Assembly: GCF_027460265.1 (NCBI RefSeq)
Contig: NZ_JAPZBC010000001.1
Span: 6,333,001 to 6,397,000, forward strand
Reading direction: 5' to 3'
Source: Streptomyces sp. WMMC940
GTDB lineage: Bacteria; Actinomycetota; Actinomycetes; Streptomycetales; Streptomycetaceae
Length of the DNA stretch: 64,000 nucleotides
Made by a program: the position numbers and the translations under genes. Below the pieces are notes generated by a model. It was given only the letters and a program-made list of their open reading frames with translations, searched no databases and had not been told where the DNA came from. Shown here piece by piece: positions 20,087 through 26,175 of this stretch (positions within the stretch are counted from its first letter, which is position 1; every line of letters starts with the position of its first letter).

Positions 20087-20569
20087 TCACAGCGCCGCCG
20101 CCCAGTCCGCGAGCGCGTCGAAGTCCGGCCGGATCAGTCCGATCCGGTGGTCGACGTGCAGCAGCAGGGCGGCGGCGAGGTGCTTCCGGTCGACGTACTC
20201 GCGGTCCGGGTCCGTGATCTCGTCGTCGATCCAGGCGAACGGTCGCCCGGCCGCGTACTCCAGCACGTACTGCGTCTTCCAGAACGTCCCCCGCGGCGAG
20301 GCGCCGTGCATCACGGGCCAGTCGATGAACGGCAGCTCGGGCAGCCCCAGGCGCGGTCCCACCCAGACATTGGCGTCGCCCTTCCACGTCGTCGCCCAGA
20401 CCAGTTCGTACCGGTCCCCGAGTGCGAGCAGCTCCGCGCCGTGACCCGGGTTGAGCCAGACCCGCAGGGGCTTGTCGTGCGCCCAGCCGCCGGGCCGCAT
20501 CCGGTGCGTCGTGTACCCCTCGGGCCGGCGTTCCGGTTGCCCGCCGTACGGGTTCAGTGGTCCGTCTAT
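20087..20569 (-). pseudogene. HAD-family gene, 3' part, cut off by the mobile element
   Basis: The minus-strand frame reads 'GPLNPYGGQPERRPEGYTTHRMRPGG' and on through 'VWATTWKGDANVWVGP' and 'FAWIDDEIT', which match the small actinobacterial HAD-like proteins that normally begin with a hydrophobic strand and D-x-D-G-P-L-N-P-Y. Here the codons before GPLNPY (a GTG-started VVGKID) come from the mobile element, so the first catalytic aspartate is missing. The missing ten codons lie at 26146-26175. Joining them across the shared ATAGAC restores a 168-residue protein. Translation from the element-derived GTG could give a 164-residue product lacking the DxD motif. Confidence 0.88.
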
Positions 20570-20579
20570 TTTACCGACC
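20564..20579. repeat. Left junction of the element: 6-bp core plus 10-bp end repeat
   Basis: On the plus strand GTCTAT (20564-20569, core) is followed by TTTACCGACC (20570-20579). The core also occurs at the right junction (26146-26151), and the 10-bp sequence occurs there in inverted orientation as GGTCGGTAAA (26136-26145). Confidence 0.9.
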
Positions 20580-20685
20580 ACAGGAGCCCTGATACCGGCT
20601 CTGAACTGCGACGATACATAGACTACATGTACGTGACGCCGAGTTGGGGCCGATGATGTCGTCCGTCTGAGTGATCCGGGGCCCC

Positions 20686-21231
20686 ATGTCTTTGGCCAAG
20701 GAAAACGAGGCTGCGCTTGATCGAGGAGTCGGGCAGCATGACGGTGTGGCTGATCTGCTGTGGGGAGACGTGAGCCGTTTCTTCGACCCGGATGTGATGG
20801 GGTCTCTGCCGGACCTGCGTGTCCCAGATGCCTCGGTGGAGAGCTGGCAGGCGGTCCTTGATCTTGTCGAGGCGAGAGGTTGGCATTGCCGGTACTCCGA
20901 AGGCGAGACCGTGCTGCCGGTCCCTCGGGCGGAGACCGTCCTGTCCCGCCCGGCGGACGCTGAATGTCCGAACCTGCGGGTCTGGCCGACTGCCGATGTT
21001 CTGGCGATCTTCCGATTCCAGGACGACGGTGAGATCGACTTCGACGTCGACCTGCGGGAGTTGCAGGGCCAGGAGCGACTTGATGTGTTCTGCGACTTCT
21101 TGCGGGAGATCGGGCGGTGCTTGGGCAAACCGGTGTTCATGGACGCTGAGGGCGATCATGGTCATCCGGTGCTCGGCTTCGATATCGACGCCGACCGAGT
21201 CGTCCTCCTGGCCGAGCCGCCGGCCAGGTGA
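20686..21231 (+). CDS. Unknown protein, cargo of the Tn554-like element
   Basis: The frame is open from GTG 20671. ATG 20686 gives 181 residues, but GTG 20746 ('VADLLWGDVSRFFDPDVMGSLPDL') is equally plausible, since the text before it is weakly conserved-looking. The protein is acidic and soluble, without signal peptide or membrane segments. It has an aromatic 'WGDVSRFFDPD' start, a middle block 'ADVLAIFRFQDDGEIDFDVDLREL' and a C-terminal 'GHPVLGFDIDADRVVLL' strand pattern, suggesting a small alpha/beta domain. No family was recognised. It is convergent with the next gene and lies entirely within the insertion. Confidence 0.6.
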   Translation: MSLAKENEAALDRGVGQHDGVADLLWGDVSRFFDPDVMGSLPDLRVPDASVESWQAVLDLVEARGWHCRYSEGETVLPVPRAETVLSRPADAECPNLRVWPTADVLAIFRFQDDGEIDFDVDLRELQGQERLDVFCDFLREIGRCLGKPVFMDAEGDHGHPVLGFDIDADRVVLLAEPPAR

Positions 21232-21279
21232 TTGCGGTCGCCGGCCGCGACCCGCAGCGGGCGCCACTGCGGAGGATGA

Positions 21280-21690
21280 TCAGTCGGTAGCGCCCGCCGA
21301 GCGGAGCGAGCGGCCGAGCTCACCGACGAGCAGACGAGGGTGGCGCCGCCACCACCACATGTCGCTGGGGTCGAATCCGCTGATCCGGTGGAACCGTGAC
21401 AGCGAGATGCCGTCGTCGAAGACGGTGGCGGCCCGGAAACGGTCGTCGAGGGCCTTGACCTGCGGGGTCCATAGGACGATCACGCGCTCCGTGAGGATCG
21501 GCCACGCCTCGTGCAGCCAGTTCCGGCTGTAGAGGTCGTTGGTGTATTCGTCCACCAGGTCGCTGTAACCGTCCTCGACCTGGCCCACGAGCCAGGCCCA
21601 CTTGTCGACCATCTCTTGGACGGTGAATGCCTTGCGCCAGCCGCGTTGACGCAGGACCTCGCCTGCTGCCGACTCGTTGTGGGGCTCCAT
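21280..21690 (-). CDS. Unknown protein, second cargo gene
   Basis: This 136-residue protein starts at ATG 21690. It is rich in Trp and charged residues ('QRGWRKAFTVQEMVDKWAWLVGQVEDGYSDLVDEYTNDL', 'NWLHEAWPILTERVI', 'DMWWWRRHPRLL'), predicted mostly helical and soluble, and has no catalytic motif that I recognise. It is convergent with the neighbouring unknown gene (48-bp gap). A strong hairpin separates it from tnpC, so it is transcribed independently of the transposition genes. Confidence 0.6.
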   Translation of the reverse strand: MEPHNESAAGEVLRQRGWRKAFTVQEMVDKWAWLVGQVEDGYSDLVDEYTNDLYSRNWLHEAWPILTERVIVLWTPQVKALDDRFRAATVFDDGISLSRFHRISGFDPSDMWWWRRHPRLLVGELGRSLRSAGATD

Positions 21691-21711
21691 CTGCCGGATC
21701 CTGGCATACGA

Positions 21712-21754
21712 CTCGGTCCGGTGACCACGGGTTTCCCGTGGTCACCGGACCGAG
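21712..21754. terminator. Perfect 20-bp hairpin after tnpC
   Basis: The arms 21712-21731 and 21735-21754 are perfectly complementary with a 3-nt loop. The hairpin lies between the end of tnpC (21772) and the start of the minus-strand cargo gene (21690). It should terminate the tnpABC transcript and insulate the cargo gene. Confidence 0.88.
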
Positions 21755-21771
21755 CGGCACTACTTGAGTTC

Positions 21772-22347
21772 TCAGCTGTCGACGATCTGGGCTTCGAGGT
21801 CGGCGAGGCGCCGGTCCTGGAAGCGGAGGTTGGAGCGGGCGGCCTTGAGTCGCTCGTCGAGGGTGCGGTTGTCGGTCGTGAGCTGGCGGACGCGTTGTTT
21901 GAGGGTGGTGTTCTCGGTGGTGATCCGCTGGATGGCCTCTTCGGTCCACTCGGCTTCCAAGTCCCTGATCTGGCCGAGGAGTTCGCCGATGCGGGTGCGC
22001 TGGGTGAGGATCTCGGCCTGGGCGGCCTTGAGAGCGTCCTCGGCGTTCAGGGCACGTTCGCGCCAGGTCGCCTCGCGTTCGTCGTGCTGGTCGGCAAGCA
22101 ACTGGGTCCGGCGGTCTCCGGACTCGGCCATCGCGCTGGCGACCGTGGCTCGGGCCTCGGCGTTGTCGTAGAGGAAGGTGCGCGAGACGTCTGCGCGACG
22201 GGCGACAGCGGCGACGCTGACCTGGGCTTTCTCGCGCCGAAGCCGGGTGATGGCTTCGCGGACCCGCTGGAGCGCGGTCTCCGTCCTGTGGCGGCGGGCC
22301 TCCAGGGCGGCGGCCGTGCGGGGTTCTGGGACGGCAGCGGTCTTCAT
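21772..22347 (-). CDS. tnpC: TnpC-like transposition accessory protein (HTH plus coiled coil)
   Basis: This 191-residue protein has ATG 22347 overlapping the tnpB stop (ATGA). The N-terminal part has a helix-turn-helix-like segment, 'VSVAAVARRADVSRTFLYDNAEA' (about residues 44-66). The remainder is a long heptad-rich coiled coil ('IGELLGQIRDLEAEWTEEAIQRI', 'TTLKQRVRQLTTDNRTLDERL'). This layout matches the third protein of Tn554-type elements, which affects orientation and efficiency of transposition. It is the last gene of the tnp unit and ends before a strong hairpin. Confidence 0.82.
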   Translation of the reverse strand: MKTAAVPEPRTAAALEARRHRTETALQRVREAITRLRREKAQVSVAAVARRADVSRTFLYDNAEARATVASAMAESGDRRTQLLADQHDEREATWRERALNAEDALKAAQAEILTQRTRIGELLGQIRDLEAEWTEEAIQRITTENTTLKQRVRQLTTDNRTLDERLKAARSNLRFQDRRLADLEAQIVDS

Positions 22348-24847
22348 ACGATGTCCTGATCGGGGTCGTTGTCGGTTGTGCGCGTATCGCTGTACTCGCT
22401 CTGGTCGCCTTCGCCGCCTGCGGCGGCGAGGTCCGCGGCGCGGAAGGCGGTGGACCACACGCGGTGGAAGTAGTCCTGCGGTTTGCGCAGATCCAGGGCG
22501 AGCGCGTCGTCGAGGAGCCCGAGCCCCGCCAGGGCCTTCTCCAGGCCGTCGATGGCGCGGGCGGTGGGCTCGAAGTAGCGGTGGAGGTAGTCGGCGGTGG
22601 CGTCGTCCGGGGCGCCCTCGGCCAGCAGCCGCCACTGCTCGCGCTTGCGCTGCCAGTAGAGGAGGTCCGCGCCGGAGAGGACGAACTTGTCGCAGTTGTG
22701 GCAGTCGAGGTTCCAGGGACAGGCGCCGCCATCGACGACCGGCTGGAAGGTGCAGAACCCACCCTCAGCTGGGGTGCTGCGGCGGGCCAAGTCGACGGCG
22801 ATGGCCAGTGCCTGCTCCTTGGTGAGTGCCTCGGACGAGTCCCCCGCGAGAAGCTCCCCCGGCGTGGCGGTACCGGGGCCGGCGACCCACACGTGCTGGA
22901 GCACGTTCTCCAGGTCAGTGTTGGAGAGATGGACGTAGTGCTCGGCCATCCTGTCCGAGACGTGCCCGAGATAGCGACGGATGTGGGTGAGGGTGGCGCC
23001 TTGGCGGAGGAGGCTGGTGGCCAGGGTGTGGCGGGCCTGGTGGGGGACGCAATGACCGATGTCCATGGAGTCGACCCAGGGGCGGAAACGGCTGTAGAAC
23101 CAGGGTCTGCTCAGTGCGATTGTTCCGTCGGTGCTGCGGTAGTTGGTGGGGAACAGCGCGAGGCCGTCGCGTTCCTTGCCCGTTGGGGTGTAGCCGTGTT
23201 CGTCGGCGAATCGGCCGAGGGTCTTGCGTTGCCGGTCGGCGATGAGGCCGAAGAGCGACTCGGGGATGCGGATGGCCGCGTCGTAATTGCCCACCTTGGT
23301 CTGGTCGTGCCAGAGCATCGCGAGCCCGTTGAGCCGGCCAATACAGTTCCAGCGGAGCTCGATCACCTCGCCCAACCGTCGTCCGGTCACCACGACGATC
23401 TCCCAGATGTCTCGAGCTCCCTCGTCATCCGGATCGTGGACACGTGTGAGCTCGGCGAGATTGCGCTCGTCTGCCAGTGCGCGTGCCACCTCGTCGGCGA
23501 AGGGGCGCCGACGCTTCGGATAGGCCGTGGCGCCGGCGTTCGGCAGCGCGACGACGCATCGGACCGGACCATGGCCAAAGAGGGGAGTCCATGGCGTTCG
23601 CGATGTCTCTGATCTGCCACGAAGCGATCGGCGTGCTCCTTCGCCAAGACTGCGGGGTCGTGGCCCCCGCCAGGGGCATCGACTTCAAGGAAAGCGCTTA
23701 ATTCGGTCATCGCGCGGCGAATTTGGTCGAGTTTGTGAGCGCTGGGGCATCGGGGTGAACTCAGGATCTCGGCAAAGTAGTCCCACGCGATTCCCTGTAG
23801 CCATTGTTGGGAGATCTCGGTGAGGCTGATATGCCCGAGTCGCTGATCGAGGCTGACGCCGAAGTGCCTGGTTTCGATAAATCCAGCCGCCTTGGTCTCC
23901 TCGCGCGTGAAATAGATTAGACGCAACTCATGGAGGATCTCTTTCGTGATCCCCGTGGCGGTCTTAGTCAAGGAGGAGACGTCCAGATCGATGATCGAGC
24001 TCGCGTCTGTTTCGCGACAGGCATTCACTACCATGCGGAGTGCGATGACATCCCAACGGGCAGGACGCGACCGTTGGGTGTGAGTGAACAGTCCCCACTG
24101 GATCTCCTTCTGTGTCAGGGGACGCAGGCCACGCAGGTTCAACTGGGCGGGCAAGGCAACTGCGGCCTCCGCATTGCACCATGTCTGGAACTGGTTGCGG
24201 TCCGTGTAACTGACTGCAGCTTCGTCGTCACGCCACCATCTCTGCGAAATCGATGCGCCGCCGGGAGCACCCGCCCTCCGGTAGGCGTTACCGTGCCGAC
24301 GGCATAGTCCAATCGGCGACTCTGCCAACAGAGGACAGACCAGCACCGCGCAAGCCCCAAACCCCGGAGAAGGGCTTTGCTCGGCGACCCACTCATCCAA
24401 GTCGAGTACGGCTTCTTTTCCAGCTCGCGCCCGACTCCACTTCTTGAAGTGCAATTCGCAGAGACGGTACTCACCCGGTCGCGCGGGGCGCTCGGGACAG
24501 ATCAGGCACGACATATTGCCGTAATGATCGGTTGATTGACCCAAAGGTTCAGCAGTGCTGAGAAAAGCAGACCGGCTGACTCCTTGCTTCGCGACGGTCA
24601 GCCACTCTTCTCGATGGCTGTGGCAGAAGTCGCCGAGGCCGGTAGCGCGCTCGCAACCACCGACCCGGCAGAACCATCGATAGGTCTGGTGTCCCTGTGG
24701 GATTTGGATGATGTCGTCGTGAAACAGGGGATCGAAGGAGGGCGCGTTCATCAGCGCGGTGAGGATCTCCAAACGATCTCTGCCGATCCGCGTGTCGCTC
24801 CGGTGCGTGGTCAGCAAGGGCAGCAGGAAGGCGTCCCGGCGCTTCAT
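22344..24847 (-). pseudogene. tnpB: TnpB-like tyrosine recombinase, split by a frameshift
   Basis: The 5' part begins at ATG 24847 (overlapping the tnpA stop). It contains Cys/His clusters ('WFCRVGGCERATGLGDFCHSH', 'CLICPERPARPGEYRLCELH') suggesting metal binding, then a core-binding region. Near 23545-23570 the homology leaves this frame, which runs on to a stop at 23387, and continues in the frame 'ALPNAGATAYPKRRRPFADEVARAL'. The 3' part has the catalytic set: Arg in 'VTGRRLGEVIEL', Lys in 'QTKVGNYDAA', 'HQARHTLATSLL', 'YLGH' and the nucleophile in 'MAEHYVHLS'. A C-terminal 'CPWNLDCHNCDKFV' zinc-type motif follows. A -1 shift would rejoin the halves. There is a TTA leucine codon at 23699-23701. 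Confidence 0.82.
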
Positions 24848-26058
24848 CGGTTCTCACCCCAGACGGTACGCAGAGCAGCGTCGAAGACCGGATCGTGGAT
24901 GTCGACGTGGCCGTAGACCTCGTCGACCATCGCGGCCGAGGCCCAGCCGCCCGCGTCCCGGGCGATCAGGGTGTTGCCCTTCGCAGCGTCGAGAACAGCC
25001 GAGGTAAACGTGTGCCGGAAGGCATGAGGCTTCACCAGCCCCAGACCAGCGCGTTTCCCTGCCCGGCCGAGCATCCGGCGGGCGCCGACCGGGGCCCACG
25101 GCTGACCCGCATCAGCGCCGTGCAGCTGGACCAGGAGCATGCCGTGCCGGGCGCCGCGCGGGAACTCGGTCGTCATGTACTCGAAGTAGGAGTGCACCAT
25201 CGCCGGGCTGACTCGCTTGATCAGCCCGCCGGTGACCGTCCCCCGCGTGACCTGCCACGGGTGCTTGGTCTTGGCCTCGGCCTGGTTCGGGTTGCCGGGT
25301 CGGTGGCAGACGTGCAGGTGCGGGGTGCGGCACTCGCCGCAGGCCGCGTTCTCCCGTAGGTGCAGGTCGACCAGGTGCAACCCGCACAGTTCGCCGATCC
25401 TCAGACCCCCGTCGGCGAGCCAGTCGACCACCAGCCGGTCCCGCGCGGCGTTCACCGCCTCCAGCAGCTTCTCCCTCGCCCCGTCGGGCAACATCTTCGG
25501 GTGCCGGCGGTGCGGCCCCTTCGGTGCCAGCGGGTTCGTGGGCAATGGCGACTTCGCGTGGCCGAGGAACGAGCGGCGGCGGTCCACCCGCGACGGCAGC
25601 CGGGACCTGTCGAGCTTCCCACCGAGCTCGCCGTTGATGCCGAGGGAGGCTTGGTGCAGGTAGAAGCCCTTCAGACAGGCCGCCGCAGTCGACAGCGCGG
25701 AGGGGCTGTAGGGGCGCTTGCCGACCCGCCATGGTTCTCCGAGAGGCATGCGGACCTCGGCGCCGACGATCCCCATGTACCGTTCCAGGTCGCGCAGTTG
25801 GACCGCGTCGAAGGCCAGGCACTCGCGCTCCAGCCAGCGCAGATGGTCCACCAGGTAGTACGCGTAGGTCTTCTGTGTGCCCGAGCCTTCATGCTCCCGC
25901 AGGAACCGATCCGCCTCCGTGTGGAGCGTGCCCTCAGGCCAGACGATCGTCCATGATCTCCGCCCGTCCTTCCGCTCGATCCGCTGGACCCTCAGGTCTC
26001 CGATCACGACGTGCCGTACCACTTGTCCTCCGTACCGACTCCGGAACATGACAGACAT
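24844..26058 (-). CDS. tnpA: TnpA-like tyrosine recombinase
   Basis: The protein has 404 residues from ATG 26058; an in-phase start at 26100 would leave only 45 bp to the element end. It has a core-binding domain with 'GTQKTYAYYLVDHLRWLERE', then the catalytic domain: Arg in 'DGGLRIGELCGLHL', 'HAFRHTFTSAVL' (H-x-x-R), the 'GGWASAAMV' position and the tyrosine in 'DEVYGHVD'. A cysteine pair in 'ENAACGECRTPHLHVC' interrupts the domain. It is the first gene of the tnp unit, reading away from the right end of the element. Together with TnpB it should recombine the ends at the GTCTAT core. Confidence 0.87.
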   Translation of the reverse strand: MSVMFRSRYGGQVVRHVVIGDLRVQRIERKDGRRSWTIVWPEGTLHTEADRFLREHEGSGTQKTYAYYLVDHLRWLERECLAFDAVQLRDLERYMGIVGAEVRMPLGEPWRVGKRPYSPSALSTAAACLKGFYLHQASLGINGELGGKLDRSRLPSRVDRRRSFLGHAKSPLPTNPLAPKGPHRRHPKMLPDGAREKLLEAVNAARDRLVVDWLADGGLRIGELCGLHLVDLHLRENAACGECRTPHLHVCHRPGNPNQAEAKTKHPWQVTRGTVTGGLIKRVSPAMVHSYFEYMTTEFPRGARHGMLLVQLHGADAGQPWAPVGARRMLGRAGKRAGLGLVKPHAFRHTFTSAVLDAAKGNTLIARDAGGWASAAMVDEVYGHVDIHDPVFDAALRTVWGENR

Positions 26059-26067
26059 CTCGGCCCC

Positions 26068-26077
26068 GGTCGGTAAA
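26068..26077. repeat. Subterminal copy of the element end sequence
   Basis: GGTCGGTAAA, identical to the terminal 10 bp at 26136-26145, occurs again 68 bp further inside in the same orientation, just upstream of the tnpA start. It may be an accessory recombinase-binding site or an operator for tnpA. Confidence 0.75.
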
Positions 26078-26135
26078 CGAGCCCATGACGTCCTGGTCAC
26101 AAGCCCAGACGGACATCACGGGCGGCACTACCCGC

Positions 26136-26151
26136 GGTCGGTAAAGTCTAT
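26136..26151. repeat. Right junction of the element: 10-bp end repeat plus 6-bp core
   Basis: GGTCGGTAAA (26136-26145) is the inverse of the left end. GTCTAT (26146-26151) is the direct repeat of the left core and is also codons 9-10 of the interrupted HAD gene. Confidence 0.9.
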
Positions 26152-26175
26152 GTCGATCAACAGCAGTGGCTTCAT
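26146..26175 (-). pseudogene. HAD-family gene, 5' fragment (ten codons)
   Basis: Read on the minus strand from ATG 26175, the codons give MKPLLLIDID, the first beta strand and the D-x-D catalytic motif of a HAD protein. The fragment ends exactly at the ATAGAC core. Continuing directly with 20563 downwards gives D-I-D-G-P-L-N-P-Y, the expected family motif, in frame. Confidence 0.88.

What the first reader, a model, noticed from the sequence alone, without database searches (positions are those of the whole stretch)
20564..26175. Tn554-like element inserted precisely between the catalytic D-x-D and G-P-L-N-P-Y of a HAD gene
The two halves of one HAD-family gene lie 5.6 kb apart. Ten codons (MKPLLLIDID) are at 26175-26146 and the remaining 158 at 20563-20087; joining them at the shared ATAGAC restores a continuous frame and the family motif. 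Seen directly: the core direct repeat and the 10-bp inverted ends TTTACCGACC/GGTCGGTAAA. Known: Tn554-family elements use TnpA, TnpB and TnpC and recombine at a short core in a fixed site. Inference: this lineage uses the codons of HAD motif I as its attachment site, a highly conserved target that would give it a home in many Streptomyces.
Basis: partly seen in the sequence, partly recalled or inferred. Interest (0 to 1): 0.72.

Follow-up and report, generated by a model that had tools for sequence, protein, structure and literature searches.

The report
Jumping gene splits a conserved-motif codon
A 5.6-kb mobile element sits exactly inside the active-site codons of a Streptomyces gene; its relatives share the same ends but hit conserved spots in other genes, and which gene they hit goes with an apparently exchanged front part of one of their two recombinases.

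Summary
A 5,576-bp TnpA-TnpB-TnpC element (20570-26145) splits a HAD gene after codon 10, with 10-bp inverted ends and a 6-bp core (ATAGAC) at both junctions. A syntenic relative has the empty site. The window's tnpB is broken (two frames), so this copy probably cannot move alone.

The nearest relatives do use this HAD codon pair (7 distinct insertions, this one and one remnant included). The wider family, with the same ends, hits other genes: ComM, TniB- and TniA-like genes, an ATP-grasp gene and more. The core is usually a hydrophobic-acidic codon pair: 51 of 73 distinct sites end in D/E/N codon letters, against 7.7% of random flank positions. In four families tested the site ranks at the 87th-96th percentile of conservation.

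Most novel: target goes with the N-terminal part of TnpB (three CCCH motifs), which between target groups is near-saturated at synonymous sites while tnpA, the tnpB 3' part and the ends are not; tnpA and tnpB-N trees conflict. I infer an exchangeable target-choosing module. TnpA predicts target nearly as well (28 against 31 of 38), so causality is open.

The parts
20087..20569 (-). HAD_SAK_2-like gene, codons 9-168 and stop (C-terminal part, core included)
   Evidence: intact homologue L082: PF18143 E 5.3e-6, 27.3 bits, just under the cutoff of 27.5
20564..20569 (-). 6-bp core at the cargo-side junction (attR-like): ATAGAC
20570..26145 (-). whole Tn554-related element, 5576 bp
20570..20638 (-). 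conserved 3'-terminal ~69 bp of the element, ending GGTCGGTAAA
20671..21231 (+). cargo gene 1, unknown function; not found in the other 38 elements compared
21280..21690 (-). cargo gene 2, unknown; also in L033 (71%) and a fragment in L079
21712..21754 (.). perfect 20-bp hairpin between tnpC and cargo, terminator-like by shape
21772..22347 (-). tnpC (DUF6262, 191 aa)
   Evidence: PF19776 E 9.8e-11
22344..23489 (-). tnpB second frame: tyrosine recombinase catalytic domain
   Evidence: PF00589 E 1.7e-16
23387..24847 (-). tnpB first frame: N-terminal region, no Pfam hit; last ~43 residues do not align with the intact TnpB of near relatives
24293..24670 (-). three CCCH (zinc-knuckle-like) motifs, TnpB residues 60-185
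   Evidence: of 12 Cys/His, 6 invariant and 6 in at least 90% of 52 sequences; all 12 invariant in 42 of those
24844..26100 (-). tnpA, tyrosine recombinase, 418 aa
   Evidence: PF00589 E 8.8e-13
26068..26077 (+). internal third copy of the terminal repeat, 68 bp inside the tnpA-side end
26136..26145 (+). terminal inverted repeat at the tnpA side
26146..26151 (-). 6-bp core at the tnpA-side junction (attL-like): ATAGAC = HAD codons 9-10
26146..26175 (-). HAD gene codons 1-10 (MKPLLLIDID)

Best explanation
This is a Tn554-related actinobacterial transposon (TnpA, long TnpB, TnpC). Its two tyrosine recombinases exchange strands across a 6-bp core flanked in the circular form by GGTCGGTAAA and TTTACCGACC (circle inferred). 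On insertion the target's own 6 bp stay at the tnpA side, and 6 bp brought from the donor site end up at the cargo side. TnpA and the ends are shared across the family. I infer that the N-terminal region of TnpB (three CCCH motifs, extending through about residue 540) reads the target DNA, and that elements switch targets by recombining this region in. Lineages persist by homing on codons a host gene cannot easily change, here motif I of a HAD gene. Shown: anatomy, empty site, shared ends, target diversity, TnpB-N/target association, mosaic history. Inferred: target reading by TnpB-N, zinc binding, circle, copy-in route.
For: Same ends, different targets. TnpB-N identity follows target group; in windows of 30 residues, within/between-group identity is 86-93/29-57% over residues 1-300 and 97-99/92-99% over 721-840. 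Fourfold synonymous identity between groups: 65-75% in tnpA, 40-55% in tnpB 1-540, 69-78% in 661-873; unrelated codons would give 39-40%. Clades of one gene are rejected by the other: p 4.7e-11, 0.002, 3.7e-4 (clades chosen after seeing the trees). HAD in the second set: 5 of 5 loci at >=74% TnpB-N, 3 of them insertions not seen before. L062 has a nuclease-group TnpB-N, sits in another gene and carries an ATCGAA core at its cargo side. Two 99.96% identical copies sit at equivalent sites of two TniA-like genes of one genome, in opposite orientations. Core polarity: the two 6-mers differ in 14 of 24 elements with both junctions; in the 5 where I could tell the native one (L042, L047, L048, L052, L062; for L048 and L062 from recalled protein motifs) it is at the tnpA side, the polarity described for SEs and Tn554 (PMC10214605, passages).
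Against: Nearest neighbour by TnpA predicts target almost as well as by TnpB-N (28 of 38 against 31 of 38). Trees separate the two genes only slightly: target labels need 11 changes on tnpA and 8 on tnpB-N with TniB-like targets split in two, a split I made knowing the TnpB-N groups; with one TniB label it is 8 against 7. Several unrelated TnpB-N types hit ComM (25 of 28 ComM pairs are under 50% identical), and L061 uses the same TniA-like site as L037 with 57% TnpB-N identity. The divergent region includes the core-binding part and the start of the catalytic domain, so the selector is not narrowed to the CCCH part. AlphaFold gives a confident model (pLDDT 86.5) but no PDB fold match, so DNA binding is not supported by fold (inconclusive). 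No movement was observed, and the window copy has a broken tnpB. Target labels were assigned by me from flanking sequence, not blind.
Confidence: 0.62

Rival explanations
1. Target choice is a property of the whole recombinase set inherited by descent; TnpB-N merely diverges most and marks lineage, without reading DNA.
For: TnpA nearest neighbours also predict target, 28 of 38; same-target pairs are closer in TnpA too (92.5 against 87.1); with one TniB label the trees need 8 (tnpA) and 7 (tnpB-N) changes.
Against: Synonymous sites, not only amino acids, are near saturation in tnpB-N and not in tnpA or the tnpB 3' end; tnpA and tnpB-N trees conflict; the gap for TnpB-N remains after regressing on TnpA (18.6 points, 0 of 5000 permutations, TniB-like targets split).
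Confidence: 0.3
2. The catalytic-motif pattern is a by-product of a simple DNA preference (NTSGAS core) in GC-rich coding DNA plus our ability to recognise conserved motifs. This can be true together with the best explanation.
For: The core consensus is visible at DNA level and 6 further sites carry it in reverse; L072 has a GAG-containing core out of frame with the gene.
Against: In the four families tested, the 9-column window at the site is at conservation percentile 96, 96, 95 and 87, more than a plain core preference requires; same-group elements hit the same gene in different species.
Confidence: 0.35
3. A DDE-type transposon with 6-bp target duplications.
For: The 6 bp are identical on both sides in 10 of 24 elements, the window's included.
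Against: The other 14 of 24 differ; both recombinases match PF00589 and no DDE family was hit in the element's proteins.
Confidence: 0.02
4. The HAD gene is naturally encoded in two pieces.
For: None found.
Against: Intact homologues in many genomes and a syntenic empty site.
Confidence: 0.01

Closest known systems
Tn554-related actinobacterial transposons (Van Houdt et al. 2012, PMC3414803; passages read)
   Same: short and long tyrosine recombinases plus TnpC in one orientation; actinobacterial hosts including Streptomyces; long recombinase with an N-terminal extension of over 400 aa without recognisable domain
   Different: the passages seen give no ends, cores or targets for these elements and cite a unique site for Tn554; here conserved ends, a 6-bp core, many targets and a mosaic TnpB are described
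Tn554/Tn558/Tn6188 of Firmicutes (PMC3788773, PMC7843796; passages read)
   Same: tnpABC; 6-bp cores that can differ left and right (GATGTA, GATCCA for Tn558); insertion beside a highly conserved amino-acid motif
   Different: single site in radC and no inverted repeats in those two papers (PMC10214605, does describe imperfect ones for Tn554); here exact 10-bp inverted repeats and targets other than radC
Strand-biased circularizing elements, SEs (PMC10214605; passages read)
   Different: SEs carry a further gene, Tfp, absent here; mainly Gammaproteobacteria
GInts (PMC5385486; abstract and passages read)
   Same: several tyrosine recombinases plus a TnpC-like GinD; site-specific islands
   Different: three putative integrases, cargo from 2.5 kb to at least 70 kb, imperfect direct repeats

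Membership tests
Tn554-related actinobacterial transposons | adjacent short and long tyrosine recombinase genes | tested here: met
   TnpA 418 aa; TnpB 873 aa in the two nearest relatives, two frames in the window; both PF00589
Tn554-related actinobacterial transposons | third gene tnpC in the same orientation | tested here: met
   191-aa DUF6262 protein; sequence identity to Tn554 TnpC itself not tested
Tn554-related actinobacterial transposons | long N-terminal extension of the long recombinase without known domain | tested here: met
   no Pfam, NCBIfam or PADLOC hit for TnpB first frame
Tn554 sensu stricto (Firmicutes) | unique insertion site in radC | tested here: not met
   HAD gene here; other genes in relatives
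Tn554 sensu stricto (Firmicutes) | 6-bp core, no target duplication, imported 6 bp at one junction | tested here: met
   met in relatives: cores differ between sides in 14 of 24, native one at the tnpA side in 5 of 5 that I could decide; the window copy itself has equal cores and is uninformative
Tn554 sensu stricto (Firmicutes) | TnpA, TnpB and TnpC needed for transposition | not testable with these tools
   needs a mobility assay
SE elements | Tfp gene between intA and intB | tested here: not met
   tnpA and tnpB overlap by 4 bp, no gene between
GInts | three integrase-type genes plus ginD | tested here: not met
   two recombinases only

The most novel reading that the evidence does not exclude
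Tn554-type transposons are naturally retargetable: a zinc-knuckle-bearing N-terminal module of the long tyrosine recombinase selects the target by reading codons of conserved active-site motifs, and elements change host gene by swapping this module between conserved ends and a conserved TnpA.
Probability: 0.48. Interest if true: 0.82.

Novelty: new variant of a known kind. Interest (0 to 1): 0.65.

Why it matters
How tyrosine-recombinase transposons choose and change targets is poorly understood. If a separable TnpB region sets the target, the family is a natural panel of site-specific integrases with a common catalytic body, and the question of which Tn554 protein recognises the target becomes a direct domain-exchange experiment. 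It also suggests a general strategy: a mobile element keeps a reliable home by using codons that its hosts cannot change.

Tried and rejected

Weakened on recheck: with the TniB-like targets split into two labels the tnpB-N tree needs 8 changes and tnpA 11; that split was made knowing the TnpB-N groups. With one label it is 7 against 8. I changed three odds for this (best explanation and novel case down, the descent rival up).

Dropped rows: one search kept the best 80 of 119 relatives (79 loci). In one search, 20 of 79 gave no 5' end; L192 and L235 repeat L191 and L234; L214, L241 and L257 had doubtful ends; 54 were labelled. One search left out L041, L056, L057, L068, L076, L214, L241, L257, any end with more than 3 mismatches, and repeats of the same left 20 bp. 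One search used 18 elements of the closest group; L038, L040, L042, L050, L059, L064 and L065 were not used. In one search, loci with the gene interrupted or partial (L129, L135, L138, L152, L155, L176, L091) were left out; some rows kept there are near-copies (two loci of G025 and two of G047 among the TniB-like). In some searches elements were chosen by me.
Full report
WHAT IS THERE. The window lies in a 7.67-Mb genome of three contigs. On the minus strand the gene for a small HAD protein starts at 26175, is cut after codon 10 and resumes at 20563. Between the halves lies an element of 5,576 bp with exact 10-bp inverted ends. The 6 bp ATAGAC (codons 9-10, Ile-Asp of the D-x-D motif) stand at both junctions. 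The terminal 10-mer occurs three times in 64 kb, all in the element: both ends and once 68 bp inside the tnpA-side end. The genes are tnpA, tnpB and tnpC, then two small cargo genes behind a perfect 20-bp hairpin. The HAD gene is HAD_SAK_2-like: the intact homologue scores 27.3 bits, just under the cutoff of 27.5.

THE WINDOW COPY IS DAMAGED. In most relatives tnpB is one frame, 873 aa in the two nearest. In the window it falls into two frames, and 118 bp are missing relative to L058. The element is therefore probably immobile unless helped. No cargo match to L058 was found; the last 69 bp match again. Of 39 elements compared, only this one carries cargo gene 1.

EMPTY SITE. Of 100 relatives searched, 63 hold a HAD homologue at E<=1e-15, among them 50 of 61 same-genus genomes. 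In L082 the two window flanks are contiguous at 93.3-94.6% DNA identity and meet in the 6-bp core. There the core reads ATCGAC. None of 27 intact motifs read has the ATA codon that the window carries at both junctions; I cannot explain this.

RELATIVES. In 150 genus genomes, 61 matched TnpA at E<=1e-3, many of them only as distant tyrosine recombinases. In 392 genus genomes, 46 had a match at E<=1e-40; in 296 class-wide genomes, 6 did, in 4 of 114 genera. I fetched the surroundings and read both junctions where I could find them. The ends are shared; the targets are not. They include: HAD motif I (WIN, L058, L031); Walker B of TniB-like ATPases (L032, L034, L036); a conserved strand in TniA-like genes (L037, L038, L039, L061, L079); a nuclease-like gene at (V/I)E-(Y/F)K (L035, L043, L060, L066, L077); an ATP-grasp gene at (I/L)E-CNP (L040, L042); Walker B of ComM (sense: L046, L047, L051, L052, L053; antisense: L041, L067); an AlkB-like gene (L048); TrpA (L071); and a Ku-like gene (L114). 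Pfam passes its cutoffs for TniB-like L036, ATP-grasp, ComM, TrpA and the hydroxyacyl-CoA dehydrogenase of L062; it is below cutoff for AlkB-like and TniA-like, gave only a weak DUF5655 hit for the nuclease-like gene and nothing for L034. Those names, Ku and radical SAM, and the catalytic roles, are my reading from recalled motifs. Plasmid copies in Rhodococcus (L111, L112) also place an acidic codon at the core as I read the frames.

THE SITE. Over 73 distinct sites, the core's last three letters code for D, E or N in 51, against 7.7% of random flank positions; 6 more have it in reverse; 16 have neither, 8 of these TniA-like. Of the 51, 46 lie in a frame open over the 40 codons before. V, I, L, M or F fill 3.09 of the 4 places before the acid, against 1.22 for other acidic residues nearby. 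Sites of one target group are not independent. In four families with intact homologues, the 9-column window at the site ranks at conservation percentile 96 (HAD, 28 sequences), 96 (TniB-like, 20), 95 (nuclease-like, 16) and 87 (ATP-grasp, 28); the acidic residue alone ranks at 70, 91, 90 and 93. The other targets were not tested in this way.

HOW IT INTEGRATES. The two 6-mers are equal in 10 and differ in 14 of 24 elements with both junctions, so they are not a target duplication. In the five cases where I could tell the native one (L042, L047, L048, L052, L062; for L048 and L062 from recalled motifs), it stands at the tnpA side. This is the polarity reported for SEs and, by the same authors, for Tn554-related elements (PMC10214605, passages). 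Two copies, 99.96% identical over 5,281 bp, sit in one genome at the equivalent site of two TniA-like genes whose flanks match at about 70% DNA identity, in opposite orientations: movement is recent and orientation is free.

WHAT SETS THE TARGET. In the closest group, TnpA is 79-97% identical whatever the target. TnpB residues 1-440 are 75-94% identical within a target group, apart from L061 (55-57% to the other TniA-like cases) and L034, whose TniB-like target differs in sequence from that of L032 and L036 (55-57%); between groups identity is 36-59%, save the pairs named next. L062 looks like an exception but informs: it lies in a hydroxyacyl-CoA dehydrogenase gene, has a nuclease-group TnpB-N (90-94%) and carries at its cargo side a core, ATCGAA, unlike its own site. 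L033 and L034 also share TnpB-N at 90%, and L059 is 72% to both; L033's gene is unidentified and L059's site is off its contig. Over 18 elements, with TniB-like targets split in two, means for same-target against different-target pairs are 84.0 against 49.6 (TnpB-N), 92.5 against 87.1 (TnpA) and 85.5 against 82.6 (TnpC). Along TnpB, between-group identity climbs from 29-57% (residues 1-300) to 92-99% (721-840), while within-group identity stays at 86-99% up to residue 840. Fourfold synonymous identity between groups is 40-55% over residues 1-540, near the 39-40% expected for unrelated codons, but 65-75% in tnpA and 69-78% in the tnpB 3' part. So tnpB-N has an older history than the DNA around it.

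TREES. Clades of one gene are rejected by the other at p = 4.7e-11, 0.002 and 3.7e-4 (clades chosen after seeing the trees): tnpA and tnpB-N have recombined. The counts of target changes are weaker: 11 on tnpA and 8 on tnpB-N with the TniB-like targets split, but 8 and 7 with one TniB label.

SECOND SET. A scan of the one-genome-per-species collection found 119 relatives of TnpB-N and kept the best 80, giving 79 loci in named organisms; 54 were labelled. The 5 loci with TnpB-N at least 74% identical to the window's are in HAD motif I; 3 of them (S. swartbergensis, DSM 15324, CB01373) were not in the first set. I read none of the other 49 as that site; L232 is in a HAD gene at another place, antisense. 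Pairs with TnpB-N at 70% or more share the target in 35 of 43; 6 of the 8 misses involve L244, which is L062 again. Pairs under 50% share it in 25 of 1,190, all 25 in ComM. Nearest neighbours share the target in 31 of 38 by TnpB-N and 28 of 38 by TnpA (shuffled labels, TnpB-N: mean 2.5, maximum 10). The TnpA result tempers the claim: lineage alone predicts a good deal.

THE TnpB N-REGION. Of twelve Cys/His in three CCCH motifs, six are invariant and six are in at least 90% of 52 sequences; all twelve are invariant in 42 of these, most of which are 39-49% identical to the window's. AlphaFold gives a mean pLDDT of 86.5 for residues 1-443; no solved fold matches, which is inconclusive. DNA reading and zinc binding are inferred.

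KNOWN AND NEW. The class was defined in 2012 (PMC3414803, passages). Searches for Tn554 with Streptomyces, Actinobacteria, target site, insertion site, attachment site, core sequence or radC, for DUF6262, and for retargeting tyrosine recombinases listed no paper that I recognised as describing targets of these actinobacterial elements or a target role for TnpB. I opened eight papers: passages of seven, abstract and passages of one. Most subscription literature is not in that library. The element belongs to a known class; the target diversity at conserved motifs and the mosaic TnpB are, as far as these searches go, new.

Noticed in passing
window 20671-21231: Cargo gene 1 has 1,293 homologues at E<=0.001; the 120 listed are about 73-98% identical, many of them 161-aa Streptomyces hypothetical proteins, without Pfam domain. 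Why such a conserved unknown protein rides on a transposon is open.
   Followed up: partly
window 20564-20569 and 26146-26151: The core carries ATA, a codon rare in Streptomyces (recalled), at both junctions, whereas none of 27 intact HAD motifs read has it.
   Followed up: partly
   Followed up: no
   Followed up: partly
L046, L047, L051-L053, L067, L218, L226, L246, L251, L253, L260, L262, L263: ComM Walker B is hit by several unrelated TnpB-N types and in both orientations, a convergent hot target.
   Followed up: partly
L032, L034, L036, L037-L039, L190-L194, L196, L197, L199: TniA- and TniB-like transposition genes are frequent targets, so one mobile element disables another.
   Followed up: partly
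L245, L249: Two elements with 95% identical TnpB-N (L249 partial, 262 residues) sit at LE-ITxxCQxxC, which looks like the cluster motif of a radical SAM gene (motif named from recall).
   Followed up: no
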